Source: an uncultured Elusimicrobia bacterium (GTDB lineage: Bacteria; Elusimicrobiota; Elusimicrobia; Elusimicrobiales; Elusimicrobiaceae). From it: a stretch of 64,000 nucleotides of DNA. The stretch lies in assembly GCA_945913025.1 (NCBI GenBank), contig CAMECJ010000004.1, forward strand, positions 100,745 to 164,744. Direction: 5' to 3'. Of this stretch, positions 35,963 to 49,577 are shown in pieces; the stretch's first letter is position 1, and each line of letters starts with the position of its first letter. A model generated the notes under the pieces. That model saw nothing but the letters and a program-made list of their open reading frames with translations, had not been told where the DNA came from and ran no database searches. Both the position numbers and the translations under genes were made by a program.

Positions 35963-36032
35963 TTAAAACATCGCCTGTAAAAAGCGTTTTTGCAATACAC
36001 GGGGAAAATCCATCGTTAAAAACGATTTAAAA

Positions 36033-36827
36033 TCAGCATTTTTCCGGTGTTGTTTGGCGGAGGATTTGCAGCATTTGCGTGTGGATCCGTCCGTTAGTGG
36101 CCAGGAGCGTTTTGCCGTAATCTTGAATGTGTTTGAATTTTTTTCCGTCAAATCCCGTTACTTTTCCGCCCGCTTCCTGTAAAATCAAGATACCGGCCGA
36201 CACATCCCACGGGTTCAAAGCGTCTTCCCAGTAGCCGTCGGCGCGTCCGGCGGCCAGCCAGCACAAATCCAACGCGGCCGAGCCCAGCCTCCGCACGTCG
36301 TGCGAATTGTTTAAAAATCCTTCAAAACGCTTGAGCAGCGCCGGCATCCGTTCAAAACGGTCGTACGGAAAACCGGTAATCAGCAGGGAATTTTGCAGTT
36401 TGGACACGTTGGAAACGTGGATTTTTTTACCGTTCAGCGTGGCTCCTTTTCCTTTTTGAGCCAAAAAGGTTTCGCCCGTAACGGCGTTTTTTACGCCGCC
36501 CAAAACGGGTTCGTTCTTATAAAAAAGCGCGATGGATGTGCTGCATTGGGGAAAGGTGTGGGCGAAGTTGGTAGTACCGTCAATGGGGTCCACTACCCAG
36601 GTGTAATCGCTGCCCGTATTTTTCAGGCCGTTTTCTTCGGCCAGATAATCGTGCTGCGGAAAATTTTTGCGAATGACGGACAGCACGGCTTTCTGTGCGG
36701 CTACATCAGCCGCAGTAACCAGATTGGCTTTGCCTTTCAGTTCGTAATCCACTTTGCCGAATTTGGCGCGCACCACTTTGGCGGCCGCCTCCAAGGCTTG
36801 TTGCAGAACGGTAAATTCTTTTTTCAT
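36033..36827 (-). CDS. suhB: inositol monophosphatase family protein
   Basis: Protein of 264 residues with the metal-binding motifs of inositol monophosphatases: AEENG, WVVDPIDGTTNFAHTFP and NPWDVSAGILILQEAGGKVT. It dephosphorylates inositol phosphates or related substrates; SuhB proteins also act on rRNA transcription complexes in some bacteria. It overlaps the preceding nuclease gene by 4 nt, making a two-gene operon. Confidence 0.9.
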   Translation of the reverse strand: MKKEFTVLQQALEAAAKVVRAKFGKVDYELKGKANLVTAADVAAQKAVLSVIRKNFPQHDYLAEENGLKNTGSDYTWVVDPIDGTTNFAHTFPQCSTSIALFYKNEPVLGGVKNAVTGETFLAQKGKGATLNGKKIHVSNVSKLQNSLLITGFPYDRFERMPALLKRFEGFLNNSHDVRRLGSAALDLCWLAAGRADGYWEDALNPWDVSAGILILQEAGGKVTGFDGKKFKHIQDYGKTLLATNGRIHTQMLQILRQTTPEKC

Positions 36828-38314
36828 TTTTTAAGATTCAGTACGTCGGCTTCTTTGAGTTTATTTTCCAAATCCAACATCGCTTTGCAGTCGTCCTCAT
36901 TGTACATCAGCACTTTTTTCAGCAAATCGTCGTTGCCGGTTTTCAGCCAGTTGGTAAAATAAACCATACTGTCCATTGCGCCGCAGTCGTCCTGCCGCCA
37001 GTTAAACCCGAAGGCGGGCGCGGCGGCTTTTAACGAAAAACTCGGCGCGGGCAGATAAAAAGCTTTGTTGACGGCCACTTTCAGGTCGTAGCAGATATTG
37101 CACAACGCTTTTAATTTGGCGGCGTCCTGCGGGTTTTTGTCCGCCAGATTTTTCATTTTTTTAACTTCGTACTCCGTCCAATGGTAGAGGGCGGTGTCGG
37201 AAAAATCTTTTACGTAATCGTAAAATTGTTCGAAAATTTTAATTTCTTCTTCCGGCGTTTTGGCCACGAAGCTGACGTACTTATCCTCTTCTTTATCCCA
37301 AATTCCGATTAAGTAGACGAAAGAGACGTTGTCTTTCGTGAAGGTTTCCGTCGCTTCAAAATCAAAATACAAATTGTATTTTTTGGCGGGCGGGGGGAAG
37401 TGCCCCGCTTCGCGCAGCACGGGTTTATGGTGCAGATAGGCTTGGGCGTTATAATAGGAGTCGGTGGCATAGGGTTCTTCCAGAATACCGCGCAATTTTT
37501 CAAGCCCCGCGCGCGCAACGTCGTCGGTCGTGTGCATACCGTTGATTTTCAGGCATTGGCGCATTTCGGTATTTAGCGCGGGCAGCATCAGCAAATCTTT
37601 GCTCTGGGCGACCGTTTTGTTGGCGTACACGCGCCACGGCGCGCCGGCGGCTTTGGGCGGTTTGTGCGCTTCGGGCTTGGCGAGCCCGTCGCGGATGTTG
37701 CGCCAGTAAGCCAGTTCGCGGGCCAAGCGGTCGCAATGGTCTTGGTATTCCACGTTGATTTGGCGGTCCTTTAAAAATACGCGTGCGTAGTCCGGCGTAT
37801 ATTTTTGCGTAACGCCCAATATGCGGTTAAGCAGACAGACCTGCAGCGCGTAATGTTCCTTTAAATCGTGCGCCCGTTTGAATTGGTATAAGCGGTAATG
37901 GTAATTGCCGAACACGCTTTTTGCGTCGTCAAAGCGGACGAGCAGATTTACGCTGCCGTAGGTGCTTTCCGGCAGGTTCCACAGTTGGGCGTTGGCGATG
38001 GCGGATTCCCCGCGCGCCATAGCGGCCAATGTATTTTTAAAGCGTTCGGTTTCGTTATCCGCGGAAATAAAAACGACGCCCTGAAATTCTTTTTTAATCC
38101 ATTCGTCGCGGGTGTGGCGGTCGGTGCGTATTTTTAAATTTTCGTAGCGGTTTGCTTCGGGTACGGCTTCTTCGCGCGGAGCGTGAAATGCGCACCATAT
38201 GCTGAACGGATCTTCCAAAAGCGTATACATTCGGGAAGCGTTAAAATCCCGCTGGTCGGGGGTGCGGCCGTCCGATAGGGTATTAAATAAAAGTTGAAGG
38301 TCTTGCTCAGTCAT
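36824..38314 (-). CDS. TM0106-type RecB-like nuclease with RNase H-like domain
   Basis: Protein of 496 residues. The N-terminal ~280 residues resemble the RecB-like nuclease region of TM0106 proteins (DFNASRMYTLLEDPFSIWCAFHAP, GVVFISADNETERFKNTLAAMARG). The C-terminal ~200 residues are a predicted RNase H-like/DEDD exonuclease (PF13482): YLYFDFEATE-like motif NLYFDFEATET, LYHWTEYEVKKM, and YNEDDCKAM. DNA repair or nucleic-acid turnover is expected; unstudied in this group. A TAAAAT box lies 9 nt before the ATG on the minus strand. Confidence 0.75.
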   Translation of the reverse strand: MTEQDLQLLFNTLSDGRTPDQRDFNASRMYTLLEDPFSIWCAFHAPREEAVPEANRYENLKIRTDRHTRDEWIKKEFQGVVFISADNETERFKNTLAAMARGESAIANAQLWNLPESTYGSVNLLVRFDDAKSVFGNYHYRLYQFKRAHDLKEHYALQVCLLNRILGVTQKYTPDYARVFLKDRQINVEYQDHCDRLARELAYWRNIRDGLAKPEAHKPPKAAGAPWRVYANKTVAQSKDLLMLPALNTEMRQCLKINGMHTTDDVARAGLEKLRGILEEPYATDSYYNAQAYLHHKPVLREAGHFPPPAKKYNLYFDFEATETFTKDNVSFVYLIGIWDKEEDKYVSFVAKTPEEEIKIFEQFYDYVKDFSDTALYHWTEYEVKKMKNLADKNPQDAAKLKALCNICYDLKVAVNKAFYLPAPSFSLKAAAPAFGFNWRQDDCGAMDSMVYFTNWLKTGNDDLLKKVLMYNEDDCKAMLDLENKLKEADVLNLKK

Positions 38315-38411
38315 TCTACAGCTATTTTAGCTTTTTTAGAGCGGGAATAAAACCGTTTTCTGCCCGCTTGCCAACGCGGCGTTTATTTTGGTAGCATACA
38401 ATTTTACGAAT

Positions 38412-38900
38412 ATGATAGAAATTGTACAAGAAAAAATTGCTTCCGGCGGTTTATTGACTCCGGATAAAATTTTACCGGTAACCGGAGAAACGGACAAGAA
38501 AACGCTTATCTTCCGGTTGGTACAAACCGCCTGCCGCGGACTGGAGCGGGTGGACGTTGCCGAGGCGGCGGCCCAAGTGCTTAAGCGCGAGGAAGGCCTT
38601 GGCACCGCGCTTGAAACGGGGTTGGCTATTCCGCACGCGCGGTTGGAAGAGTTGGACGATTTTGCTGCGGCTGCGGCGGTTTTATCCCGCCCGCTGACGG
38701 ACGAAAAACATCTGAAAAAGCCGACAAAGGTGATGTTTTTATTCTTGTCGCCGGATAATCCCTCTTTTTTTAAACGCCATTTGCGGCTGTTGTCTTTCTT
38801 GGCCGAAACGTTTCAGCCGGCCCTCATAGAAGAACTGGCGGGGGAACAGAATCCGGCGCGCGTGGCGGAAATCCTTGCCCGCGTGAATATGGTAAAATAA
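38412..38900 (+). CDS. PTS fructose-type EIIA (PtsN-like) domain protein
   Basis: Protein of 162 residues with the EIIA(Fru/Ntr) phosphorylation site ETGLAIPHAR (His near residue 77) and VMFLFLSPDN. The start ATG at 38412 has TACAAT 9 nt upstream. Likely a regulatory phosphocarrier, as no EIIB/EIIC genes are near. The following def gene starts 4 nt after the stop. Confidence 0.85.
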   Translation: MIEIVQEKIASGGLLTPDKILPVTGETDKKTLIFRLVQTACRGLERVDVAEAAAQVLKREEGLGTALETGLAIPHARLEELDDFAAAAAVLSRPLTDEKHLKKPTKVMFLFLSPDNPSFFKRHLRLLSFLAETFQPALIEELAGEQNPARVAEILARVNMVK

Positions 38901-38904
38901 CTGT

Positions 38905-39429
38905 ATGGCAATACTGCGCGTAACCAAATATGGCGAAGATATCCTCCGCCAAAAATTAAAACCCGTTGATTTTGAAACGATTAAACCCATTCTGCCCAAA
39001 CTTTTGCAGGATATGGAAGAAACGTGTCTTGCGGTGCGCGGCGTGGGGCTGGCGGCCAACCAAATCGGGTTGGATTACCGTCTGGCGGTTATTTTAATAC
39101 CGGAGTCGGACGAAGAAAATGCGCCGCTCAAACGTTACGTTATTATTAATCCTGAAATCGTGTCCATGCGAGGGGAAAAGCTGGAAGAAGAAGGATGTCT
39201 TTCGCTGCCAGGGCTGTGGGCCGAGGTCAAGCGCGCCACGGACGTTACGCTGAAATATACCGACGAAAACGGCAAGGAACAGGTCAAACGCGCGCGCGGG
39301 TTACTCGCCAAGGCGTTCCAGCACGAAGTGGACCACTTGGACGGCAAGCTGTTTGTCGATTTGGTGGACCCGAAACTCAAGCCGGAGTTAAAAAAAGCCA
39401 TTAAAAAACTGCGGCCGAAATGGAACTGA
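38905..39429 (+). CDS. def: peptide deformylase
   Basis: Protein of 174 residues with all three deformylase motifs: GVGLAANQIG, EEGCLSLPG and QHEVDHLDGKLF. It removes the N-terminal formyl group of nascent proteins using a metal bound by Cys and two His. TAAAAT at 38893-38898, inside the end of the PTS gene, ends six nucleotides before the ATG, so a separate leaderless transcript is possible. Confidence 0.95.
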   Translation: MAILRVTKYGEDILRQKLKPVDFETIKPILPKLLQDMEETCLAVRGVGLAANQIGLDYRLAVILIPESDEENAPLKRYVIINPEIVSMRGEKLEEEGCLSLPGLWAEVKRATDVTLKYTDENGKEQVKRARGLLAKAFQHEVDHLDGKLFVDLVDPKLKPELKKAIKKLRPKWN

Positions 39430-39444
39430 TTTTTTAGTATAATG

Positions 39445-39479
39445 CGCCCCGGAACAAAACAAAGTTCCGGGGCGTTTTT
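39445..39479. terminator. terminator between def and a pilin gene
   Basis: CGCCCCGGAAC / GTTCCGGGGCG (39445-39455 / 39464-39474) followed by five T. Confidence 0.88.
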
Positions 39480-39499
39480 GGTGTTGGAGTTGCGCAGCG

Positions 39500-40033
39500 T
39501 CAGCGGAAATAATCGTAGCCATGGTAATTGCGTTCGAACGTAAATCCCATGACTTTGGTGCAAAAATCTCCTTTGGCGTAGTTGGTGCGTCTGTCTCTTT
39601 CTACACAAAACAGTTCGTCTCCGGAGGATATTTCGCTTTTAATATACGCGAATCCGGCGCACGGGTACGGGCCTTGGGTAAATACGGCGAAAAGATCATT
39701 CCATAACGTGGATTTCCCAATAACAAGGGCGTAATCTTTCCCCAGTTTTAACGTGTTTCCCGTTCCGACGCTCAAGCCACAGGCCGTTCCCTGTTGGGAT
39801 GGAAGGGGAAAATCCAGGTCCAGGCCGTCAAAATTTTCCGGCCAGCTGCCGTTTGCCAGAAAATAGCTTTGCACCGCTTTGTTTAGCCCGTTAATGGCCG
39901 TATACAGTTGTGCGGCGCGCGATTTGGCTACCGTTTTTTGGTACTGTGGCAGGGCGATTGCGGATAAAACGCCGATAATGAGTACGACGACTAATAATTC
40001 AATAAGTGTAAACCCATCGGTGCGTTTGTGCAT
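39500..40033 (-). CDS. type IV pilin-like protein
   Basis: Protein of 177 residues. Prepilin leader MHKRTDG, cleavage before FTLIELLVVVLIIGVLSAIALPQYQ (the conserved hydrophobic helix with Glu5), then a variable domain with four cysteines (CGLS, CAGF, CVER, CTKV). Start at 40033 because AGGAGAACAAT precedes it; an apparent upstream extension is untranslated leader. Such pilins or pseudopilins are exported and assembled by the type IV pilus or type II secretion machinery. One of three in this window. Confidence 0.9.
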   Translation of the reverse strand: MHKRTDGFTLIELLVVVLIIGVLSAIALPQYQKTVAKSRAAQLYTAINGLNKAVQSYFLANGSWPENFDGLDLDFPLPSQQGTACGLSVGTGNTLKLGKDYALVIGKSTLWNDLFAVFTQGPYPCAGFAYIKSEISSGDELFCVERDRRTNYAKGDFCTKVMGFTFERNYHGYDYFR

Positions 40034-40392
40034 ATTGTTCTCCTGTTTATTCCATCCGTTTTTGGAGAACGCGCTGCAAAAAAACGGCTGCCATATCCGA
40101 GCTAATCCTAGTAACCCAAATATAAACAGCCGCGGTTTGCCGTCCTTGCGGGCGGCAAACACTTGACGCAAAACAACCGGGTAATTAGTCCGTTTATTTT
40201 GCGTCCGAAACGACTGTTCTTGGACTAGGATTATGCCTTTGGCGTACCAAAAGCGCACCGTATGCCTTATACGGTTCCAAAAACAGATTAAATTTGTAAC
40301 CGGGTTTTTTCGGACCCGGGGTCCAACAATAAAACTCCTTTGCTGGAATGATTTATTTTAGCATATTTGTTTTTTTGATAGACGGCCCGGGT
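40034..40392. other. long upstream region of the pilin gene, full of hairpins
   Basis: No gene. Inverted repeats present: TTTGCCGTCCTTGC-GGGCGGCAAA type (about 40136-40160), GTGCGC...GTACGCC-like near 40230-40255, GTATGC...GCATAC near 40258-40275, and GGACCCGGGGTCC (near 40312). The run of short stems looks like a structured 5' untranslated RNA for the pilin mRNA. Confidence 0.45.
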
Positions 40393-41139
40393 CTATTTTG
40401 TCTTACCCTGTGCGGCTACGGCGGCCATTTTGCGTTGGATTTCTTGCGGATTTCCCAAAAAGTAATCTTTTTGCAAAATGCGCCCGTTGTTAAATTCAAA
40501 TACGTACGGCACGCCCGTGGGCAGGTTTAAATTGACGATTTCTTCGTCGGACATGTTTTTTAAATACTTTACAATCCCGCGTAAACTGTTGCCGTGCGCC
40601 GCCACCAAAATTTCGTCCGCATCGGCCAAACGGGGGAAAATCACTTCTTCCCAGTACGGCATTAACCGTTCCACCGTGTCTTGTAAAGATTCCGTCAGCG
40701 GCAAATAGGCCGGCGGAAGGTTTTCGTAGCGTTTGTCGTTTTGCGGCGCGCGCGGGTCGTCCGGACTTAATGCGGGCGGGCGGACGCCGTAACTTCTGCG
40801 CCAGATTTTGACTTGTTCTTCTCCGTACTTTTCGGCGGTTTCGGCTTTGTTGAGGCCTTGCAATGCGCCGTAATGTTTTTCGTTCAGCCGCCAGTCTTTT
40901 TCCACGGGCAGCCAGTCTTGGTCCAGTGCATCTAACACTTCGTTTAGCGTTTTGACCGCGCGTTTTAAGTAAGATGTATACGCCGCATCAAAATAAAATC
41001 CGGCTTTTTTTAGCAGTTTTCCGGCGCGGCGGGCTTCGCGCAGCCCCAGCGGTGTCAGGTCTACATCCGTCCAGCCCGTAAAACGGTTTTCCAAATTCCA
41101 TTGGCTTTGCCCGTGGCGCAAAAGTACGATTCTCTTCAT
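40393..41139 (-). CDS. gpmA: 2,3-bisphosphoglycerate-dependent phosphoglycerate mutase
   Basis: Protein of 248 residues. Phosphohistidine motif [20 protein letters not shown] (His9), [12 protein letters not shown], and second catalytic histidine in [10 protein letters not shown]. It interconverts 3- and 2-phosphoglycerate. A cofactor-independent isoenzyme (gpmI) is at 59-60.5 kb, so the genome carries both. Good ribosome-binding site AAAGGAGGAGATTT. Confidence 0.95.
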
Positions 41140-41207
41140 AAATCTCCTCCTTTATATTGGGGAGTATAACGGTCTTTTTATTTTGTATTGCGTATAAAAA
41201 AGGTTAG

Positions 41208-41236
41208 TTGCGTATTTTTTGGAATTTTACTATACT
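41208..41236 (+). promoter_or_regulatory. promoter of the lysA-lysC leader
   Basis: TTGCGT (41208-41213), 17-bp spacer, TATACT (41231-41236). The box ends six nucleotides before the ATG of the leader ORF at 41243, the same spacing as other leaderless genes here. Confidence 0.75.
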
Positions 41237-41242
41237 AACTTT

Positions 41243-41335
41243 ATGAGCTTTATTCTATCCGTCAAACGTGTAAGCAAACAGGACAAGAGCAAAAAACGCT
41301 CTTGCGCCTCAGCTTACAATTTTGCGGAAAAATAG
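41243..41335 (+). CDS. leader peptide with clustered lysine codons (candidate lysine attenuation peptide)
   Basis: ORF of 30 codons plus TAG, shorter than usual gene-calling limits. Residues 8-18 contain five lysines (V-K-R-V-S-K-Q-D-K-S-K-K-R), ending in an AAA AAA pair at 41291-41296. A sixth lysine is residue 30. Serine is equally frequent overall (six), but lysine is the clustered residue. It starts on a probable leaderless mRNA. The ribosome stalling at the Lys codons would lie over the first hairpin of the attenuator, while a ribosome reaching the stop codon would lie next to the antiterminator strand. No homology is claimed. Confidence 0.65.
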   Translation: MSFILSVKRVSKQDKSKKRSCASAYNFAEK

Positions 41336-41397
41336 CGCTTTACTTAATATAACCGGTTTGCAACGCTCCCGCTTAATTGTAAGCGGGAGCTTTTTTT
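41284..41397 (+). promoter_or_regulatory. transcription attenuator upstream of lysA (antiterminator versus terminator)
   Basis: Hairpin 1: CAAGAGC / GCTCTTG (41284-41290 / 41298-41304) inside the leader ORF. Antiterminator: GCTTACAATT (41312-41321) is perfectly complementary to AATTGTAAGC (41375-41384). Terminator: GCTCCCGCTT / AAGCGGGAGC (41365-41374 / 41381-41390) plus seven T. The antiterminator uses the loop and part of the 3' arm of the terminator, so the two cannot coexist. Confidence 0.75.
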
Positions 41398-41424
41398 GTG
41401 CGTTGCAGCCAAGGAGAGAAAACG

Positions 41425-42675
41425 ATGTGCTTTCATTATCAAAACGGCGAAATGTATGCGGAAGGTGTAGACGTAAAACGGATTGCGCGGGAGGTGGGAA
41501 CCCCCTTTTATTGCTATTCGTCTGACAAACTGACGCAAAACTATCAGGCGTACCGCGAAGCGTTGGCGGAATTTAACGCTACGGTCTGTTATTCCGTGAA
41601 AGCCAATACAAACTTGGCGATAGTATCCGCTTTGGCGCGTATGGGCAGCGGTGCGGATGTGGTGTCTGCCGGCGAAATGTACGTGGCGATGAAAGCCGGT
41701 ATCCCTGCGGATAAAATCGTATTTTCCGGCGTAGGTAAAACGGCGGCGGAACTGGAAGCGGCCATTAAAAACCAAATTTTGCAAATTAACGCGGAATCAG
41801 CCGCCGAGGTCCGCGCTATCAACGAAATCGCGCTGCGCTTGGGGATAAAAGCCAATGTGGCGCTGCGCGTCAATCCGGACGTGGACGCCTTGACGCACGT
41901 CAAAATTACCACCGGCAAGAAAGAAAACAAATTCGGCGTAGACTGGGATGACGCGCTTCCCCTATACCGTGAAGCGTCCAAAATGGAAGGCGTCCGTTTG
42001 GCGGGGATTGCCGTGCATATCGGGTCGCAGCTGTTGGACGCGGAACCGTTCCGTCTGGCGTTTGCCAAAGTGGCGGCAATGGTGCGGGAACTGGAAGCGG
42101 AAGGCATCGTGTTGGATAATATTGATTTGGGCGGCGGTTTGGGCATTAACTATAATGCGGAGCTGCCCCTTACCTGCACGGCGTATGCAGAGGTGGTGCG
42201 CGAGACGCTGGGCAGTTTGCACAAACATATTATCGTGGAGCCCGGCCGCTCGGTAGTGGGCAACGCGGGTATTTTGGTAACCGAAGTGGTTTGTACGAAA
42301 AAAATGGGAAGCAAAAACTTTATTGTAGTGGACGCCGGTTTTAATGATTTGGTCCGCCCCGCTATGTACGATGCGTGGCATACCATTCAGCCCGTTTCCA
42401 AAAAAGGCGTTGCGCCGTTAATCGCCGATATCGTTGGGCCGATTTGCGAGTCGGGCGACGTTTTCGCCAAAGACCGCATTATTGAACCTGTGCAAGCAGG
42501 GCGGCTACTTGCTATAATGTGTGCTGGGGCATACGGCGCATCAATGTCGTCTATTTATAATTTCCGCCCGCTGGTGCCGGAAGTGATGGTGCGCGGCGGG
42601 GAATTTTGCGTCGTACGCAAACGGACTTCTTACGAAGAAATGCTGGCAGGACACAGCCTGCCCGCGTGGTTATAG
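41425..42675 (+). CDS. lysA: diaminopimelate decarboxylase
   Basis: PLP enzyme of 416 residues. Lys59 in CYSVKANTN binds PLP; the barrel carries GSGADVVSAGEM, HIGSQLLD, LGGGLGI and EPGRS, and the second domain GPICESGD and CAGAYGASMSS. It makes L-lysine from meso-diaminopimelate in the last step of lysine synthesis. Start at 41425 after AAGGAGAGAAAACG. First gene after the attenuator, followed 8 nt later by aspartokinase, so both ends of the lysine pathway are co-regulated. Confidence 0.95.
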   Translation: MCFHYQNGEMYAEGVDVKRIAREVGTPFYCYSSDKLTQNYQAYREALAEFNATVCYSVKANTNLAIVSALARMGSGADVVSAGEMYVAMKAGIPADKIVFSGVGKTAAELEAAIKNQILQINAESAAEVRAINEIALRLGIKANVALRVNPDVDALTHVKITTGKKENKFGVDWDDALPLYREASKMEGVRLAGIAVHIGSQLLDAEPFRLAFAKVAAMVRELEAEGIVLDNIDLGGGLGINYNAELPLTCTAYAEVVRETLGSLHKHIIVEPGRSVVGNAGILVTEVVCTKKMGSKNFIVVDAGFNDLVRPAMYDAWHTIQPVSKKGVAPLIADIVGPICESGDVFAKDRIIEPVQAGRLLAIMCAGAYGASMSSIYNFRPLVPEVMVRGGEFCVVRKRTSYEEMLAGHSLPAWL

Positions 42676-42683
42676 GACTGGCT

Positions 42684-43412
42684 ATGAGACAAATTTGCAT
42701 TATGAAATTCGGCGGCAATACGCTGGCCAATAAACAAAAACTTTTGATGGCGGCAGAGTTAATCAAATCCCGCTATGACAACGGTTTTATCCCCGTAATT
42801 GTGGCTTCGGCCAATGGTAATTTAACCGACGTCTTGCTGGATCACGCCTACAGCATTACCGCCAGCCCCGACAAGCGCGAACTGGATATGCTGATTACTA
42901 CCGGCGAGCGCGTCAGCGTGGCGCTTTTGTCTATTGCGCTGCGGGCCATTGGTGTTCCCGCCGTATCGCTGACGGGGTCGCAAATCGGCCTTATTACCAC
43001 TTGTACGCATACGGGGGCGGATATTTTATCTCTGAAAGGAGACCGCTTGGTGCGGGAGATTGAGTCCGGACACGTCCCCGTGGTGGCCGGTTTTCAGGGA
43101 ATCGGCGAAAACAAGGAAATTACCACGTTAAAACGCGGCGGGTCGGACGTGTCGGCCGTATTTCTGGCCTGCCAGCTGGGGGGCAAGCACGTGGAGATGA
43201 TTAAAGACGTGGATGGCGTTTATTCCGCCGACCCCAACAAAGACGAAAAAGCCCAAAAATACGAAGTGTTGGATTTTGACGAAATGTATAAGCTCGCCTT
43301 AAACGGTGCGAGCGTGCTTCATCCGGACGCCGTGCGCCTGGCCAAAGAAAAGGGCGTGGAAATCCGTATCGTGCACTACCAAACGGGGCAAACGGGAACG
43401 GTAATCCGTTAG
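42684..43412 (+). CDS. lysC: aspartokinase catalytic domain without ACT regulatory domains
   Basis: Protein of 242 residues of the amino-acid kinase fold. Motifs: IMKFGGNTLANKQK, MLITTGERVSVALLSIAL, TLKRGGSDVSAVFLA, KDVDGVYSADPN and the C-terminal GASVLHPDAVRLA. Typical aspartokinases have about 160 further residues forming two ACT domains that bind lysine or threonine; these are absent. It phosphorylates aspartate at the start of the lysine/threonine/methionine pathway. Without ACT domains, feedback inhibition by lysine would have to come from elsewhere, in line with the attenuator upstream. ATG at 42684 after TAGGACTGGCT. Confidence 0.88.
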   Translation: MRQICIMKFGGNTLANKQKLLMAAELIKSRYDNGFIPVIVASANGNLTDVLLDHAYSITASPDKRELDMLITTGERVSVALLSIALRAIGVPAVSLTGSQIGLITTCTHTGADILSLKGDRLVREIESGHVPVVAGFQGIGENKEITTLKRGGSDVSAVFLACQLGGKHVEMIKDVDGVYSADPNKDEKAQKYEVLDFDEMYKLALNGASVLHPDAVRLAKEKGVEIRIVHYQTGQTGTVIR

Positions 43413-43423
43413 GAGGTTTTTTT

Positions 43424-43588
43424 ATGGCTTTTAAATTCAGCTTAATAAATGTGGCTGCGTTTTTATTGTTGGGTGGGGCCGTATATGCGTGGGGCCCCGG
43501 CTGGGGCGGGTTGTGGCGCGCCGCGGTAAGTGCGTTATTGTACGCTGCCGTATTCGGGGCGTGCTTTGTAGTTGTCAAAAGACGGTAG
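43424..43588 (+). CDS. 54-residue membrane protein
   Basis: Short gene with a strong ribosome-binding site (AGGAGG, 7 nt from ATG), 11 nt after lysC. The product has two hydrophobic helices separated by a Gly/Trp-rich turn (AVYAWGPGWGGLWRAAV) and ends KRR. Function unknown. The following gene also starts with a strong GGAGG site. Confidence 0.55.
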   Translation: MAFKFSLINVAAFLLLGGAVYAWGPGWGGLWRAAVSALLYAAVFGACFVVVKRR

Positions 43589-43608
43589 TTTGACGGAGGA
43601 CAAAATAG

Positions 43609-43905
43609 ATGAACCCATTTTTCTTATTACAGTTCTTGCCGGTAATTATGGTGCCATGGCGGCCAAGCGGGCAGCCTGTTATACGGAATGCTTCTTTGTC
43701 CGGATTCAAAATGTGCGGTTTTGTGATTATAGCGCTGGGGATGATCATTTATTTTTGGTTTCTAAAGTGGTATCAGGCCCACTCTGTGTGGGGTAAAATT
43801 ATTGTATGGACGGCTGCGGTATGGTGCGTTTTACGGCTGATAGGAATTATCCGTTCTTTTTGCGATGATCCCTATACCCGCGTAAAATCCGATACATACA
43901 AATAA
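43609..43905 (+). CDS. small membrane protein
   Basis: Protein of 98 residues with two or three hydrophobic helices (residues 1-17, 35-52, 62-80), basic and polar ends, and no recognised family. GGAGGACAAAATAG precedes the ATG and it follows the 54-residue gene by 20 nt, so it may belong to the lysA-lysC transcript. Confidence 0.55.
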   Translation: MNPFFLLQFLPVIMVPWRPSGQPVIRNASLSGFKMCGFVIIALGMIIYFWFLKWYQAHSVWGKIIVWTAAVWCVLRLIGIIRSFCDDPYTRVKSDTYK

Positions 43906-43939
43906 AAATATGCCTAAAATATGATATGATATTTTTAAT

Positions 43940-44374
43940 ATGGAAAACATCGTCATTTTACAGTTAATCGGGTTTACCGTTTGCTTTATTTTACTGTTCG
44001 TTTTTACGGCCAAATACCGCGCCGCGTTGGCGCACGAGACGGATTTCGAGCCGGCGGTGGAAAATTTGACCGTCGTTACCGTAGCAAAGCCCACGTATAA
44101 ACCGCGCGCGTCTGTGTTGCACTCTTTGCAGGGAACGGCATCGTTGGAAACGGCTGATTTAAAAGAAAAAGTGAAGGATTTGCATTACCGTTTGGAAGAA
44201 CTCAAAATCGCGCAGGACAAAACAAGCGGCGATTTAGCCAAACAGTTGGCCCGTATGGAACAGCGCATCAGCACATTTGAACAGGAGTATATGACCAAAT
44301 TGCAGCCTACATTGTTGAGCTTGATTGGTGAGCTGGAAAATATGAAAGTGTCTGAAAGGAAAGACGAAAAATAA
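43940..44374 (+). CDS. membrane-anchored coiled-coil protein
   Basis: Protein of 144 residues: one N-terminal transmembrane helix (about 5-25), a spacer of 45 residues, then a coiled coil (about 72-140, ADLKEKVKDLHYRLEELKIAQDKTSGDLAKQLARMEQRISTFEQ in part). No family recognised; it resembles bacterial envelope or division-associated anchored coiled coils in layout only. TATGAT ends 9 nt before the ATG. Confidence 0.55.
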   Translation: MENIVILQLIGFTVCFILLFVFTAKYRAALAHETDFEPAVENLTVVTVAKPTYKPRASVLHSLQGTASLETADLKEKVKDLHYRLEELKIAQDKTSGDLAKQLARMEQRISTFEQEYMTKLQPTLLSLIGELENMKVSERKDEK

Positions 44375-44400
44375 TTTTAATACGTTTAAAAAGTGTAAAG

Positions 44401-44426
44401 CCGCCGCCCAAAAAGCGGCGGTTTGC
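44401..44426 (+). terminator. terminator-like hairpin
   Basis: GCCGCCGC / GCGGCGGT stem with loop CCAAAAA, followed by TTTGCTTATT; weak T-run. Confidence 0.55.
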
Positions 44427-44574
44427 TTATTAAAGGAGAGACCCGTTACTATGACGGTAGCATATGTGAGTGTTGGCACGTGGGGCGGCCGCATATGCGG
44501 GATAACTTGTTTTTGAAGAAAAAAATCGTATACTATTTATATCTTTTCAACGAAATTATTTTAGGAAGATTTTT

Positions 44575-46014
44575 ATGCGTATCTTTTTTATATTATCCTG
44601 TTTATTGTCCTCGGTTTTATTATGGGCCGATCCGTGGGGGGCCTTGACGGATTATGATTTGCCTTCCCCTTCGGAAAACGGCGGATCTTCGCTTGGGGAC
44701 TCTTCCGATAATGTAGGGGAACGGTATTTGCTCCGGCCCGTATTGGAAGGCCGGACGGTTAAGGTGCGTGTTATATTGAGGGGAGAGCCGGAAGAAGCCA
44801 TGGCGTTTTGGCATGAAAAAGTTCAAGACGCCTATAACGAGTGGTTTTTTAATACGGCTAAACATATCCGCAAAGCCAGGCGCGAACGCGAATTTGCCGA
44901 TATTCTGCCGCTGCTCGACAGAGGAATTCCCATAGAGTTTGTGGAAGACGGGGAAGATATTACGATTGAGTTTGTGGACCAGAAGGAAATTGCGGCGCTC
45001 TGTGCTGCGCAGTGGGCGGGGGCGTGTTATGTGTTTGACGGTCCTAAAATTTATGTGCCAGGAAATCTGCGCAAACAGAAGATGATGGTCTTGTTGTTGC
45101 ACGAGATCGGCCATTCTCTGGGTTTTAGCGACCAATATATGCTTGCCCGTGACGGCAATACGCACCCTCTCTACAGGGGGGATAATCCCGATAATACAGT
45201 TATGAACAGCCGCCAGCACTCCCTTACGTGCGATGATGCCGACGGTATAGTTAATTTGATTGATATTACGCGCCACAATCATCGCGGCGGAAACAGCGGT
45301 TGGCGCAGCCTGTGTAAAAAATCTTCGGTATATTATGTGGGCGGAATACAGTTGGGAATAGGTCCGTATGCAATTCGCTCTAAAGACGATGATGTGTGGA
45401 ATGTAAAAACCTATCAAAACGGGGCGTTGAAAGAGGAGCAAGATTTTGCACCCCGCAAGGAGAATTCTCTTTCCCCGTTTATCTCTTTTCCGGAAGAAGT
45501 CATTCATAGAGACAAATTAAACCGTCCCTTATTGGCACAAGGCCCGAACGGCGAGAAAATCTATTATATGCATCTGTACGATTCCTCCTTTCGGTTGGTC
45601 ACGAAAGACGGAAAAAATCTGTTGGCGGAAGAACGGAAAAAACTGGTGGAACAAGGAAAACCGCTTACCCGCCGTTCCGTCTGGTTTTACGCAAATAAGC
45701 GGGAGTCTTTTCTGCTTGCTGTCAAATCCGGTTCAAAAGGTGTTGTATATTATACTGAAGGAAAAAATGGTGAGTTTGTTTCTTTAGAAATGCGGTTTAA
45801 TAAGAAAAATCATGTTGCGGTTTGGGGCGGATCTGATGTGGCGTCCGCAGGGGTCCCTAAGTTCACAAGACCGGTTGCGCCGGCTTCGGCGTCAGCATCC
45901 TCTGGGTCCGGCGGATTATCCGGAAAACTGACAGAACAAGTAGAGAGAAAACTAAATTCTGCCCAACAACATCAATTGATGCAAGAAGTAGAACGGTGGT
46001 ATTTCAATAACTAA
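44575..46014 (+). CDS. secreted metzincin-type metalloprotease
   Basis: Protein of 479 residues. Signal peptide ending LLWADP near residue 18. Catalytic motif LLLHEIGHSLGFSDQY gives H176, E177, H180 and a third ligand Asp186, as in snapalysin-like (M7) enzymes, followed by the Met-turn NTVMNSR (Met210). The C-terminal ~260 residues carry a beta-rich region and a Ser/Ala/Gly-rich linker (about residues 440-455). It should cleave extracellular or periplasmic proteins with zinc. Monocistronic; AGGAAG ribosome-binding site. Confidence 0.78.
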   Translation: MRIFFILSCLLSSVLLWADPWGALTDYDLPSPSENGGSSLGDSSDNVGERYLLRPVLEGRTVKVRVILRGEPEEAMAFWHEKVQDAYNEWFFNTAKHIRKARREREFADILPLLDRGIPIEFVEDGEDITIEFVDQKEIAALCAAQWAGACYVFDGPKIYVPGNLRKQKMMVLLLHEIGHSLGFSDQYMLARDGNTHPLYRGDNPDNTVMNSRQHSLTCDDADGIVNLIDITRHNHRGGNSGWRSLCKKSSVYYVGGIQLGIGPYAIRSKDDDVWNVKTYQNGALKEEQDFAPRKENSLSPFISFPEEVIHRDKLNRPLLAQGPNGEKIYYMHLYDSSFRLVTKDGKNLLAEERKKLVEQGKPLTRRSVWFYANKRESFLLAVKSGSKGVVYYTEGKNGEFVSLEMRFNKKNHVAVWGGSDVASAGVPKFTRPVAPASASASSGSGGLSGKLTEQVERKLNSAQQHQLMQEVERWYFNN

Positions 46015-46040
46015 CAAGCGAATGCTTGTTTTACTGTGAT

Positions 46041-46077
46041 ACAAAAACGCCCCGAAGTAAGTTCGGGGCGTTTTTGT
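46041..46077. terminator. bidirectional terminator
   Basis: Perfect 16-bp stem from ACAAAAACGCCCCGAA to TTCGGGGCGTTTTTGT (46041-46056 / 46062-46077), between the metalloprotease gene and convergent rpoD. Confidence 0.92.
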
Positions 46078-46114
46078 AAAGTTCCAACCGGTTGCGGCAG
46101 GGTCGTGCAGCAAA

Positions 46115-47824
46115 CTATTCCTGGTAATCTTTTAACATCTTGGTACGGCTGGGGTGGCGTAATTTGCGGATGGCTTTGGCCTCAATTTGGCGCACGCGTT
46201 CGCGTGTTACGTTAAACATTTTGCCCACTTCTTCCAAGGTGCGGGGATAGCCCGAATCAATCCCAAAGCGCAGGCTGATGATTTTGGCTTCGCGTTCGGA
46301 TAGTGTCGCCAGTACGTCGGCCACTTCCTGCTTGCGCAGGAAATCCACGGCTGCGCTCGTCGGGTTCGGCCCGTTCTTATCCTCGATAAAATCTTCTAGG
46401 TTGGAATCCTCGTCCTCGCCGATAGGCGTGGAAAGCGAAATCGGGTCCTGCATGATTTTAAGAACGCTTTTTACTTTTTCCATTGATAGACGCAGCGTTT
46501 TGGAATAATCTTCCAGCGTGGGTTCGCGGCCGTGTTCCTGGCGGAACTTATTGGTAACTTTGGTCAGCTTGGAAACGAGCTCCTTCATATGCACCGGAAT
46601 ACGGATGGTGTTGGCCTGGTCCGCAATGGCGCGGTTGATGCTCTGGCGGATCCACCACGTGGCGTAGGTGGAGAATTTAAAACCGCGTTTGTATTCGAAT
46701 TTTTCCACGGCTTTCATAAGGCCCAGGCCGCCTTCCTGAATCAGGTCGGACAGTTCCAAATTGGAATTGATATGTTTCTTGGCAATGGACACCACCAAGC
46801 GCAGGTTGGCTTTAATCAGTTTTAATTTATCCTGCAAAATCATATCTTCAAAGAAGACAATGCGGTCGTTAAACGCGATAAATTCTTTTTCCGTCATCGG
46901 CAGCATATCCACCATTTGATCGTGGCGGCGGCGGACGTCCTCAATGTTACTGATGGCGCGGTCCAGCTCTTCAATGGTAAATTTGGTTTGCTTCTTAAAA
47001 TCTTTTTCGCTGATTTTGCCCTCGTGAAACCGCGTAACGAGTTTTTTGACCGATTCATACGGCCCGAAGTATTCGTCAAAGCGTTTCATATCGTTGGACG
47101 TTTCGCTTAAACGGTCGGCCAAATTTTTAATTTTATTCGTCAAGCGTTTGATTTTATTTTGGTTTAAGTTCAGCTTGGTAATGCTGGCCACCACTTCTTT
47201 CTGTTTGGCTTCCAGTTTTTCAATGCAGTTGTTGCGTTTTTTTTCGGACAAATCGCCTTCGCGCAATTCTTTCATCAGCTTGGTGATTTCCTGCTCGCGT
47301 TTGCCGATAAAAGCGGCCGCGTCTTTAAGTTTGCGGCGCATATTGTTCAGTTCTCTCGTCGTGCGTTTGCCGCGGGGCATAAGCTCTTTGGTGGTCATTT
47401 CTTCCTGGTCGACGAGTTCTTCCCAGTTGCAGATTTCGCGCATGGTGATGGGAGATTCCAGCACAAGCTTGCGCAGTTCTTTTTCGCGTTCGCGGATGTT
47501 GCGCGCGAGCGTAATTTCTTCATCGCGCGATAAAAGCGGCACTTTTCCCATTTCGGATAAGTACATACGAATGGAGTTGGAAATGTCGGGGCTGGAAGCC
47601 CAATCCTCGCTTAACATTTCTTTTTCCTGTGCGGCGACGGCTTTAAATTTTTTCTGGTCCACCACCTGAATGCCTAAATCGTCAAGCGTACCCATTACGC
47701 CGTCAATATCCTCGGCGCTCATATCCGCCGCGGCGATGGAACGGTTCAGTTCTTCCAGCGACAGAAATCCGCTCTCTTTCCCTTCTTCCAATAAATCTTT
47801 CAGCTCTTTGTTTCCGGATGCCAT
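46115..47824 (-). CDS. rpoD: RNA polymerase primary sigma factor (sigma-70/RpoD)
   Basis: Protein of 569 residues. Region 1.1-like N-terminus, region 1.2 ([21 protein letters not shown]), a non-conserved region of about 200 residues rich in charged helices, region 2 ([43 protein letters not shown]), region 3, and region 4 ([44 protein letters not shown]). Housekeeping sigma factor. Start at the ATG (47824) after GAGGAAACTT. Third gene of the rpsU-dnaG-rpoD operon. Confidence 0.95.
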
Positions 47825-47840
47825 AAGTTTCCTCAACTGC

Positions 47841-49577
47841 TTATTTTTTTAATTTGGTTTGCAACTGCATATATTCTTGAAAAATCTCTTGCGGTACGTT
47901 GCCCGCACCAAGACGTTTCATTTGGCGTTTTACTTCTTCCAAGCGTTTTTGCAGGCCCGCGTGCGCCAGTTTGGCCGCACAGGCGGCGATATCGCGCGCC
48001 GGTTCCGCGTCCTGCGGCGGCTGAAACAACGCCAACCGGACGATATCATTTTTTCTTTCCGGCGCGTATTCAGCCGCTTTTTGCGCGGCGGTTTGCGCGT
48101 CAAGGGTTTCCGAGGCCGCTTTGCGTACGGCTTCAAATAATTTCCACGCCTGTACCGTGGAAAAATCGTTTTGCGTCAGTTCCGCGCAAAGTGCGGCGTG
48201 CTGCGGCGCCCTTAACAGCCACGACGCCAGCTCCTCTTCCGCCGGAGCGGTTACCGGTGCGGCGGAATGCACCTCTTGTTTGTGCGCGAACGGAGTTTTT
48301 ATTGCCGGCCGGCGCAGCCTTTCTAGCACCAAGGCTTCGTCCACCCCCACATGTTCAGCTGCATATTTGGCCCATTCGCGCCGGACGATTTCGTCCGGTT
48401 GTTTGCCGATGGTTTCCGCCAGTTCCGTTACGATACGCGTTTTATCTTGCGCGCCGAGAGGCTGGGGATACATATTTAGCTGAAGGGCGGTATGAAAGGC
48501 AATCAAATCCTGCCCTTGGTCCAAAATTTTTTCAAATGATTCTTTGCCGTATTTGGCGATATATTCGTCGGGATCCAGCCCTTCCGGCAGCGACGCCACT
48601 TTCACAAACAGCCCGCGTTCAATCAAAATAAGCGCGCCGCGCAACGCGGCTTTAATGCCTGCCGCGTCCGGATCAAACAACACGGTTACGTTGTCCGTGT
48701 AGCGTTTCAAAAGCCGCGCGTGCTCCTCGGTCAAGCTGGTGCCGAGCGGCGCCACCGTATATTCCGCGCCTGCTTGGTGGCAGGCGATAACGTCCATATA
48801 GCCTTCAAGCAGCACCGCTTTGCCCGCTTTACGGATGGCGGGTCCCGCAAAATTCAACCCGTATAACACGCGGCTTTTTGTGAACAAAACCGTTTCCGGC
48901 GAGTTTAAATACTTGGGTTCGCCGTTCCCTAAAATGCGTCCGCCGAAGCCCACGGTGTCGCCGCGTTGGTTGATAATCGGGAACATCAGGCGGTTGCGGT
49001 AGTAATCCCGTGCGCCGTAGGCGGTAATAACGCACAGCCCCGCGTCTTTTAAATCTTTTTCCGTATATCCGGCGGCCTTGGCTTCGCGCGCAAAAGCGGT
49101 GGCGTCGTTTTTAGCAAAACCCAGTTCAAACTTTTGGCAGGTTTCTTTGGTCAGATTGCGCTGTTTCACGTACGCGCGTGCGGATTCGCCTCCGGCCGAC
49201 ATTAAATTTTTGTGATAGAACGATTTGGCTCTGTCAAGCAGCCGGCGTACGCCCGCGCGGCGCATTTCTTCGCCCGTCATGGGTTTGGCGGGTTTGTATT
49301 CCACGCCGGCCATACCGGCCAGTTTTTCAAGCGCCTCGTTAAACGACAGCCCTTCCATTTTCATCAGGAAAGCGATAATGTCGCCCCCTTCCTGGCAGCC
49401 GAAACAATAGTAAAGCCCCTTTTCGCTGCTGCAAGTGAAAGAGGGGGTTTTTTCTTTATGAAAAGGACAGCAGGCCTTGTAGGTTTTACCCGCGCGTTTC
49501 AGGTCCGGTACGTACTGGCGGATAAATTCTACAATGTCTAACTTGTCCTTGATAATTTCTACGATATTATTGTTCAC
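47841..49577 (-). CDS. dnaG: DNA primase
   Basis: Protein of 578 residues. Zinc-binding domain ([20 protein letters not shown]...CFGC), RNA polymerase core with TOPRIM ([31 protein letters not shown]), and a less conserved C-terminal helicase-interacting region. Synthesises RNA primers at the replication fork. Sixteen nucleotides before rpoD and downstream of rpsU in the classical macromolecular-synthesis operon order. Confidence 0.95.

What the first reader, a model, noticed from the sequence alone, without database searches (positions are those of the whole stretch)
41208..41424. Candidate leader-peptide attenuator with lysine codons controlling lysA-lysC
Seen: a promoter (TTGCGT, 17 bp, TATACT) places transcription at a 30-codon ORF (41243-41335) with five Lys codons in codons 8-18, ending in AAA AAA. 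Hairpin 41284-41304 covers those codons. GCTTACAATT (41312-41321) is perfectly complementary to 41375-41384, the loop and 3' arm of a perfect terminator (41365-41390, T7). The next genes are lysA and aspartokinase. Established: leader-peptide attenuation is well known for his, trp, leu, ilv, thr and phe operons, while lysine genes are usually under L-box riboswitches or T-boxes. Inference: ribosome stalling at Lys codons favours the antiterminator when lysyl-tRNA is scarce. Caveat: Ser is as frequent as Lys in the peptide.
Basis: partly seen in the sequence, partly recalled or inferred. Interest (0 to 1): 0.93.

Follow-up and report, generated by a model that had tools for sequence, protein, structure and literature searches.

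The report
Leaderless lysine leader-peptide attenuator
In front of its lysine-making genes lysA and lysC, this Elusimicrobiota bacterium has a short reading frame whose five lysine codons are kept in 34 genomes of its genus, followed by an RNA that is predicted to switch between stopping transcription and letting it through, which would turn the genes on when lysine runs short.

Summary
Of 66 genomes of the genus, 35 have lysA; 34 of these carry the leader, and in the 35th lysA is cut by a contig start. None of the 31 without lysA shows it. Five Lys columns had about 16 codon and 0 amino-acid changes; 16 other columns had 142 and 104. The antiterminator pairs in 97% of cells, with compensatory changes. 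No lysine riboswitch was found in 120 genomes. G082 (another genus) and one further MAG have diverged Lys leaders; two other lysA genes of relatives have none. Leader-peptide attenuation is classical; new are lysine codons on DAP-pathway lysA-lysC, the predicted leaderless start, and the phylum. No expression data exist.

The parts
41208..41236 (+). Promoter: -35 TTGCGT (41208-41213), 17-nt spacer, -10 TATACT (41231-41236)
   Evidence: Sequence. TTGC...TATACT-like boxes recur upstream of the relatives' leaders. The consensus scan did not list it.
41243..41335 (+). Leader ORF, 30 codons, predicted leaderless start (ATG 6 nt behind the -10); Lys codons 8, 12, 15, 17, 18 conserved, Lys30 not conserved
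   Evidence: the five Lys columns are invariant as amino acids in 34 leaders, with about 16 synonymous and 0 amino-acid changes.
41269..41275 (+). Region 1 (TGTAAGC): 5' arm of the anti-antiterminator, pairs with 41312-41318; outer pairs extend it (41258-41266 with 41321-41328)
   Evidence: Fold; pair counts on 13 and 33 leaders (88% and 87% of cells paired in this helix).
41284..41304 (+). Inner hairpin CAAGAGC-AAAAAAC-GCTCTTG over Lys codons 15, 17 and 18
   Evidence: Fold; 94.5% and 95.9% of cells paired.
41312..41327 (+). Region 2: 5' strand of the antiterminator (GCTTACAATT, then UU, then GCGG)
   Evidence: 97.3% / 97.2% of cells paired; G-C/A-U, C-G/U-A and A-U/C-G exchanges; GCGG (leader nt 82-85) invariant in 13 leaders although the frame differs in L009.
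41365..41397 (+). Intrinsic terminator: stem 41365-41390, T7 41391-41397. Region 3 of the antiterminator is CCGC 41369-41372 plus AATTGTAAGC 41375-41384
   Evidence: terminator helix 97.1% paired with 9 of 10 pairs showing a change on both sides (that alignment was fitted to this structure).
41425..42675 (+). lysA, diaminopimelate decarboxylase; Shine-Dalgarno AAGGAG at 41411-41416
   Evidence: TIGR01048 489 bits against a cut-off of 298; PF02784, PF00278.
42684..43412 (+). lysC-like aspartokinase, 242 aa, catalytic domain only; starts 8 nt behind the lysA stop codon
   Evidence: AA_kinase only, no ACT match at E<=10; aligns with the first ~240 residues of ~400-600-residue aspartokinases, below the NCBIfam full-length cut-offs; follows lysA in the 13 genus loci checked.

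Best explanation
The stretch 41208-41397 holds a 30-codon reading frame with five conserved lysine codons and two mutually exclusive RNA hairpins, and it likely works as a leader-peptide transcription attenuator that turns lysA-lysC on when charged lysyl-tRNA is scarce. Transcription is predicted to start at or next to the A of the ATG (41243), so the leader would be translated as a leaderless mRNA. With plentiful Lys-tRNA the ribosome would run to the stop codon (41333-41335) and cover region 2 (41312-41327), and the terminator 41365-41397 would form. With no ribosome, regions 1 and 2 are predicted to pair and the terminator also forms. With a ribosome held at Lys8, Lys12 or Lys15 (in most leaders also Lys17), region 1 is covered, region 2 is free, and it is predicted to pair with 41369-41384 before the terminator's 3' arm is made, so RNA polymerase would read through. 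Shown: the sequence elements, their conservation and their covariation. Modelled: the folding outcomes with an assumed ribosome footprint. Inferred: transcription start, translation, stalling and readthrough in the cell.
For: 34 of 35 lysA-bearing genomes of the genus have the leader; the 35th has lysA cut at a contig start; 0 of 31 without lysA has it. Lys columns: 16 codon changes, 0 amino-acid changes; the 16 other columns compared: 142 and 104 (Fisher p 6e-9, treating changes as independent). Antiterminator: 97% of cells paired, 8 and 21 double-change cells, 0 of 500 shuffles as high on these and on the covariation score, slid controls 30-48% paired. 13 of 13 leaders fold as a long hairpin over the ORF plus terminator when whole, and as antiterminator when nt 1-65 are hidden (1-62 in the two with a codon deletion) and the last 6 nt are not yet made. 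Stall model: Lys8 and Lys12 give antiterminator values of 0.7-1.0 in 13 of 13, codons 22, 25 and 28 at most 0.2; for G000 even in the full transcript the antiterminator reaches 0.5 or more at codons 8-10 and 12 only. -10 to ATG spacing is 6 nt in 34 of 35 leaders and 7 in one; TATAMT-N6-ATG occurs 79 times against 22 for the reversed control in this genome, and 60 of the 78 sites other than this leader open frames of at least 60 aa or still open at the locus end. Diverged Lys leaders with an antiterminator also precede lysA in G082 (MLKNAKKTDSVKKGSKKTLGA) and L167 (MVNLISLKKAGIKIMGIKKSPYLSACDFVGK). No lysine riboswitch in 120 genomes, no T-box match in the genus.
Against: No transcript, ribosome profile or lysine-response data exist here. 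The -35 box is poor. In the full-length transcript of G000 the terminator wins at most stall positions, and with nt 1-65 hidden the complete RNA keeps the antiterminator as best fold in 7 of 13 leaders only, so the switch has to be kinetic. The stall model is not specific to Lys: in G000 any stop at codons 2-17 frees region 2. Lys18 in 10 of 13 leaders, and Lys17 in several, lies at or beyond the edge of the model's window. Two covariation measures do not exceed the shuffles: further pair types (495 and 436 of 500 as high) and, on 33 leaders, the number of doubly changed pairs (69 of 500). Two lysA genes of relatives have no such leader: G083, where lysA follows an ABC-transporter-like gene, and L169. 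One leader copy (L064, in a genome with 6% contamination) has no lysA behind it. Some Lys codons overlap the inner hairpin, so part of their conservation could come from the RNA.
Confidence: 0.9

Rival explanations
1. The conserved RNA is a metabolite-binding riboswitch or T-box for lysine, and the reading frame is incidental.
For: Lysine genes are often under L-box riboswitches (PMC12925634, passages); the leader is highly structured.
Against: No Rfam family reaches its gathering score in 36000-48000. RF00168 is found in 0 of 120 genomes and RF00230 in none of the genus, while controls ring (both with stricter filters). The Lys columns keep the amino acid but not the codon. The leaders of G082 and L167 differ in sequence while Lys codons and an antiterminator are kept.
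Confidence: 0.04
2. The peptide itself is an arrest peptide (like TnaC, recalled) or a functional small protein; ribosome arrest depends on the nascent chain and a ligand, not on lysyl-tRNA.
For: Beyond Lys, Gln13 (33 of 34), Cys21 (33), Ser16 (29) and Asn14 (28) are strongly kept. The S. meliloti leader peptide peTrpL has a function in trans (PMC7298713, start of abstract in search listings). An orphan leader copy exists (L064).
Against: Only Met1 and the five Lys columns are invariant among the 13 first leaders; residues 22, 23, 25 and 27 vary, and in L009 the frame shifts there. The peptides of G082 and L167 share little but Lys with the genus type.
Confidence: 0.07
3. Chance: an A-rich stretch that happens to encode Lys in front of an ordinary terminator of an upstream transcript.
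For: The -35 box is weak; A-rich frames give Lys easily.
Against: Conserved in 34 lysA-bearing genomes with synonymous codon change and compensatory pairs; the upstream gene (40393-41139) is on the other strand.
Confidence: 0.01

Closest known systems
Classical leader-peptide attenuators (trp, his, leu, ilv, thr, phe operons of Proteobacteria; general knowledge, his described in PMC9413887, passages)
   Same: Short ORF with codons of the end product, regions 1:2, 2:3 and 3:4, intrinsic terminator, biosynthetic operon behind.
   Different: Lysine; predicted leaderless start; Elusimicrobiota; region 2 pairs mainly with the loop and 3' arm of the terminator.
Lysine leader-peptide attenuation of the alpha-aminoadipate lysine cluster of Thermus thermophilus (Tsubouchi et al. 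2005, recalled; not found in the library)
   Same: Lys codons in a leader peptide of a lysine gene cluster (recalled).
Leaderless trpL attenuator of Sinorhizobium meliloti (PMC10117765, passages)
   Same: Attenuator RNA starting with the AUG of the leader ORF.
   Different: Tryptophan, Alphaproteobacteria; its RNA and peptide also act in trans.
Leaderless poly-cysteine attenuators of mycobacteria (Canestrari 2020; seen only as a reference entry)
   Same: Leaderless short ORF sensing one amino acid upstream of an operon (from its title).
   Different: Cysteine; Actinobacteria.
Sinorhizobium SEP5 (PMC10117765, passages)
   Same: Short ORF with Thr and Lys codons proposed as a possible leader peptide for an aspartate-related gene.
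   Different: Six Thr and three Lys codons, in the 5' UTR of aspartate dehydrogenase; no attenuator structure in the passages read.

Membership tests
Leader-peptide transcription attenuator | Short ORF rich in codons of the regulated amino acid, conserved across relatives | tested here: met
   Five Lys columns in 34 leaders, 16 synonymous and 0 amino-acid changes.
Leader-peptide transcription attenuator | Intrinsic terminator between leader ORF and first structural gene | tested here: met
   41365-41397; terminator helix paired in 97% of cells in relatives.
Leader-peptide transcription attenuator | Antiterminator exclusive with the terminator, and an anti-antiterminator in or near the ORF | tested here: met
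   Covariation of 2:3 and of 1:2 (2 of 15 pairs of that helix doubly changed in each); folds of 13 leaders.
Leader-peptide transcription attenuator | Critical codons placed so that a stalled ribosome frees region 2 and a finishing ribosome hides it | tested here: met
   Model only: Lys8 and Lys12 in 13 of 13, Lys15 in 12 of 13; Lys17 mixed; Lys18 mostly outside.
Leader-peptide transcription attenuator | Regulated genes make the sensed amino acid | tested here: met
   lysA and aspartokinase follow.
Leader-peptide transcription attenuator | The leader ORF is translated | not testable with these tools
   Only the synonymous-change pattern speaks for it.
Leader-peptide transcription attenuator | Readthrough rises when the charged tRNA is scarce | not testable with these tools
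   Needs reporter or RNA data.
Leaderless mRNA | Start codon at the 5' end of the transcript | tested here: inconclusive
   6-nt -10 to ATG spacing in 34 of 35 leaders and genome-wide enrichment; no start-site mapping.
Lysine riboswitch (RF00168) | Match to the covariance model | tested here: not met
   No match in window 36000-48000, 0 of 120 genomes.
T-box (RF00230) | Match to the covariance model | tested here: not met
   none in the genus, two sub-threshold matches in another family of the order.

The most novel reading that the evidence does not exclude
In this lineage, control of the aspartate-to-lysine pathway has moved from protein to RNA: the only aspartokinase has lost its lysine-sensing ACT domain, and a leaderless lysine-codon attenuator carries the feedback, so that the lysine genes read both lysyl-tRNA charging and the cell's capacity for leaderless (70S) initiation.
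Probability: 0.25. Interest if true: 0.75.

Novelty: new variant of a known kind. Interest (0 to 1): 0.62.

Why it matters
It extends ribosome-mediated attenuation to lysine on the common DAP-pathway genes and to a little-studied phylum; the library search for Elusimicrobiota with leader peptide gave two papers, and in the one whose passages I read Elusimicrobium is named for a repressor (the other was seen only in the listing). It shows attenuation from a predicted leaderless start in an organism that seems to use such starts widely. It also pairs RNA-level control with an aspartokinase without ACT domain and a genome in which homoserine dehydrogenase was not found: a small system in which the trade between allosteric and transcriptional feedback can be tested.

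Tried and rejected
Lysine riboswitch and T-box: rejected. The best Rfam score over the leader, Spot_42 at 22.6 bits against a gathering score of 80, is a chance match. Seven weak model matches (below 40 bits) in seven genomes, two of them genus genomes without lysA (G015, G022), were looked at: terminator-like stretches without the leader ORF (L067-L070, L072-L074). The model's listing was cut at its weak end. Other attenuators of the same geometry in this genome: of the 78 TATAMT-N6-ATG sites other than this leader, 18 open short frames; none is an obvious second amino-acid leader, and one Arg-containing frame was only noted. A link between loss of the ACT domain and presence of the leader does not hold as a rule: ACT_9 has no match in any of the 66 genomes of the genus, with or without lysA, nor in most of the other family. 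Leaders in the other family of the order: 15 lysA-type loci looked at, none seen. In one search, 22 of the 26 loci were looked at; of the 16 from Elusimicrobiota, 12 show the leader with 6-nt spacing, L178 (the G080 locus by its coordinates) and L167 have 7 nt, L159 is cut by a contig start, L169 has none.

A first pass required exactly 6 nt between -10 and ATG (all 13 leaders with full upstream sequence passed, the cut L003 did not); the later pass did not require it and found one with 7. That later pass required the Lys spacing, and none of the 35 leaders given to it failed. In one search the lysA piece of L059 was only 17 residues, so its place in the tree is unreliable; Fisher's test treats changes as independent. 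MAFFT places the terminators of L002 and L030 slightly off, which lowers the counts. One search measures the antiterminator by a proxy: pairing of the last 10 nt of a transcript 6 nt short of the stem end with nt further upstream.

Full report
What was checked. The leader ORF 41243-41335 encodes MSFILSVKRVSKQDKSKKRSCASAYNFAEK. The leader from ATG to T-run folds at -55.1 kcal/mol against -33.2 for shuffles, z -5.9, 0 of 200. The 3' half alone folds into the antiterminator (z -2.3, 2 of 200). The terminator has the most pairs (11) of the 12 terminator-like sites of the region scan (8.5 expected from shuffles); the promoter is not listed there, because its -35 box matches only 3 of 6 positions.

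Anatomy beyond the finding. TGTAAGC (41269-41275, codons 9-11) pairs with GCTTACA (41312-41318). So there is a region 1 that competes with the antiterminator, extended by outer pairs and enclosing the hairpin 41284-41304. The antiterminator GCTTACAATT:AATTGTAAGC continues across a UU/UU internal loop into GCGG (41324-41327): CCGC (41369-41372). It uses the terminator's 5' arm, loop and 3' arm base, and is complete at 41384, six bases before the terminator's 3' arm ends.

Relatives. lysA was searched in 120 genomes including the window's own and the leader, as covariance model R1 built from 13 leaders, in the same 120. By kinship labels, 66 are of the genus. 35 of these 66 have lysA at E<=1e-50; 34 of the 35 have the leader; the remaining one, G077, has lysA beginning at residue 146 at a contig start. 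In one of the 34 (G012) the whole leader ORF and lysA lie on two contigs. None of the 31 without lysA shows a leader; their best model score was 38.8 bits (G015), a terminator without the ORF. A 35th leader copy (L064, G054, a genome with 6% contamination) has no lysA behind it; a PHP-type gene converges on it (naming by reading), and no antiterminator forms there.

Lys codons. In 13 leaders, Met1 and five Lys columns are the only invariant amino-acid columns of 29; Lys8, 17 and 18 occur as AAA and AAG. On a lysA tree of the 34 leaders (rooted with L167), Lys columns had 16 codon changes and 0 amino-acid changes; the 16 other columns of codons 2-22 had 142 and 104 (p 6e-9). Part of the C-terminal half is kept as RNA rather than as peptide: in L009 the frame shifts there while the RNA pairs remain.

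Structure. On 13 leaders the antiterminator forms standard pairs in 97.3% of 182 cells, with three doubly changed pairs (1 of 500 shuffles as high) and none of 500 shuffles as high in percentage paired, double-change cells or covariation score; further pair types do not exceed shuffles. On 33 leaders, 31 distinct, it is 97.2% of 422 cells with 21 double-change cells (0 of 500); the number of doubly changed pairs (4) was reached by 69 of 500 shuffles. That alignment was fitted to the other structure, not to this one. Region 1:2, inner hairpin and terminator together reach 91.1% and 92.0%. 13 of 13 leaders give a long hairpin over the ORF, taking in all or part of region 2, plus the terminator when whole, and the antiterminator when nt 1-65 (1-62 in two) are hidden and the last 6 nt are not yet made; with the last 6 nt present the antiterminator stays the best fold in 7 of 13. 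With an assumed ribosome footprint, stalling at Lys8 and Lys12 gives antiterminator values of 0.7-1.0 in all 13; Lys15 0.3-1.0; Lys17 0.0-1.0; Lys18 0.0-1.0; codons 22, 25 and 28 at most 0.2; no ribosome 0.00-0.32. For G000, codon by codon, any stall at codons 2-17 frees region 2 in the growing transcript, so the window is set by position and the Lys codons fill its second half; in the full-length transcript the antiterminator reaches 0.5 or more only at codons 8-10 and 12, elsewhere the terminator wins, so timing must matter.

Leaderless start. No Shine-Dalgarno precedes the ATG. The -10 to ATG distance is 6 nt in 34 of 35 leaders and 7 in G080. In this genome TATAMT-N6-ATG occurs 79 times against 22 for the reversed control; of the 78 sites other than this leader, 60 open frames of at least 60 aa or still open at the locus end. 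TATAAT-N3..10-ATG occurs 193 times against 136 for the reversed control; of the 100 places listed, 30 have 6 nt, the other seven spacings 8 to 14 each. A leaderless start therefore looks ordinary for this organism.

Reach. G082, of another genus of the family, with one contig of 1,643,562 bases (I recall this as the size of Elusimicrobium minutum Pei191; not checked), has MLKNAKKTDSVKKGSKKTLGA in front of lysA, again 6 nt behind a -10-like TATTAT, with a 13-pair antiterminator; model R1 did not find it. L167, an Elusimicrobiota MAG, has MVNLISLKKAGIKIMGIKKSPYLSACDFVGK, 7 nt behind TAAACT, with an antiterminator. Not found: G083 and L169, and 15 lysA-type loci of the other family.

Genes. lysA is TIGR01048. 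The next gene, lysC, starts 8 nt behind it and encodes a 242-aa aspartokinase that is a catalytic domain only; it follows lysA in all 13 genus loci checked, 10 of them complete and equally short, 3 cut, and in two more, cut, loci; the short G082 locus does not reach far enough to tell. The genome has two AA_kinase genes, this and one that reads as UMP kinase (the latter named from its sequence, recalled), no ACT_9 match and no homoserine dehydrogenase match, all in a genome of 97% stated completeness. The aspartate pathway therefore seems to serve DAP and lysine only. ACT_9 is also absent from most other genomes of the order (12 of 120 have a match, none in the genus), so this is not specific to leader-bearing genomes. 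An aspartokinase without ACT domains that resists feedback is known in Vibrio natriegens (PMC12925634, passages).

Literature. Leader-peptide attenuation of lysine genes: among the papers listed by searches 16 (20 listed of 5,932), 19, 25, 66 and 67 I saw none on it, apart from the SEP5 suggestion in PMC10117765. From memory, it has been described for the alpha-aminoadipate lysine cluster of Thermus thermophilus (Tsubouchi et al. 2005), so lysine sensing by a leader peptide as such is not new. A comparison of Actinobacteria found no RNA element on lysine operons and names L-box riboswitches for lysine genes elsewhere (PMC1262725, passage). Leaderless attenuators are known: trpL of S. meliloti (PMC10117765, passages) and poly-Cys ORFs of mycobacteria (reference entries only).

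Verdict. A conserved lysine-codon leader with a complete attenuator anatomy: new variant of a known kind. Shown: anatomy, conservation, covariation. Modelled: switching. Inferred: start site, translation, stalling and lysine response in the cell.

Noticed in passing
L064 (G054:C23:12279-12408): An extra leader copy with all five Lys codons but no lysA behind it; a convergent PHP-type gene follows. Remnant of a lost operon, a second strain in a contaminated bin, or a trans-acting RNA.
   Followed up: partly
L134 (G000:C6:28652 onward): Predicted leaderless 32-codon ORF MESVKIRFSSYRRTRVFSNKLMEHQIWSGLAF with several Arg codons, about 330 nt upstream of a membrane-transporter-like gene; possible Arg leader.
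   Followed up: no
L101 (G000:C2:104601): Predicted leaderless 16-codon ORF MEPPLPLKFNPVPYII directly upstream of what reads like S-adenosylmethionine synthetase.
   Followed up: no
window 42684-43412: Catalytic-domain-only aspartokinase in a genome without detected ACT_9 or homoserine dehydrogenase.
   Followed up: partly
window 41425-42675: Outside its phylum, this lysA is closest (49-54%) to genes in MAGs labelled Rhodospirillales, Rickettsiales or Alphaproteobacteria, closer than to lysA of the other family of its own order (38-47%), which suggests horizontal transfer.
   Followed up: no
genus-wide: 31 of 66 genomes of the genus have no lysA match at E<=1e-50, including ones stated 94-99% complete: apparent repeated loss of the last step to lysine.
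   Followed up: partly
G000, 79 sites: TATAMT-N6-ATG is 3.6-fold above the reversed control; many genes that read as housekeeping genes seem to start leaderless.
   Followed up: partly
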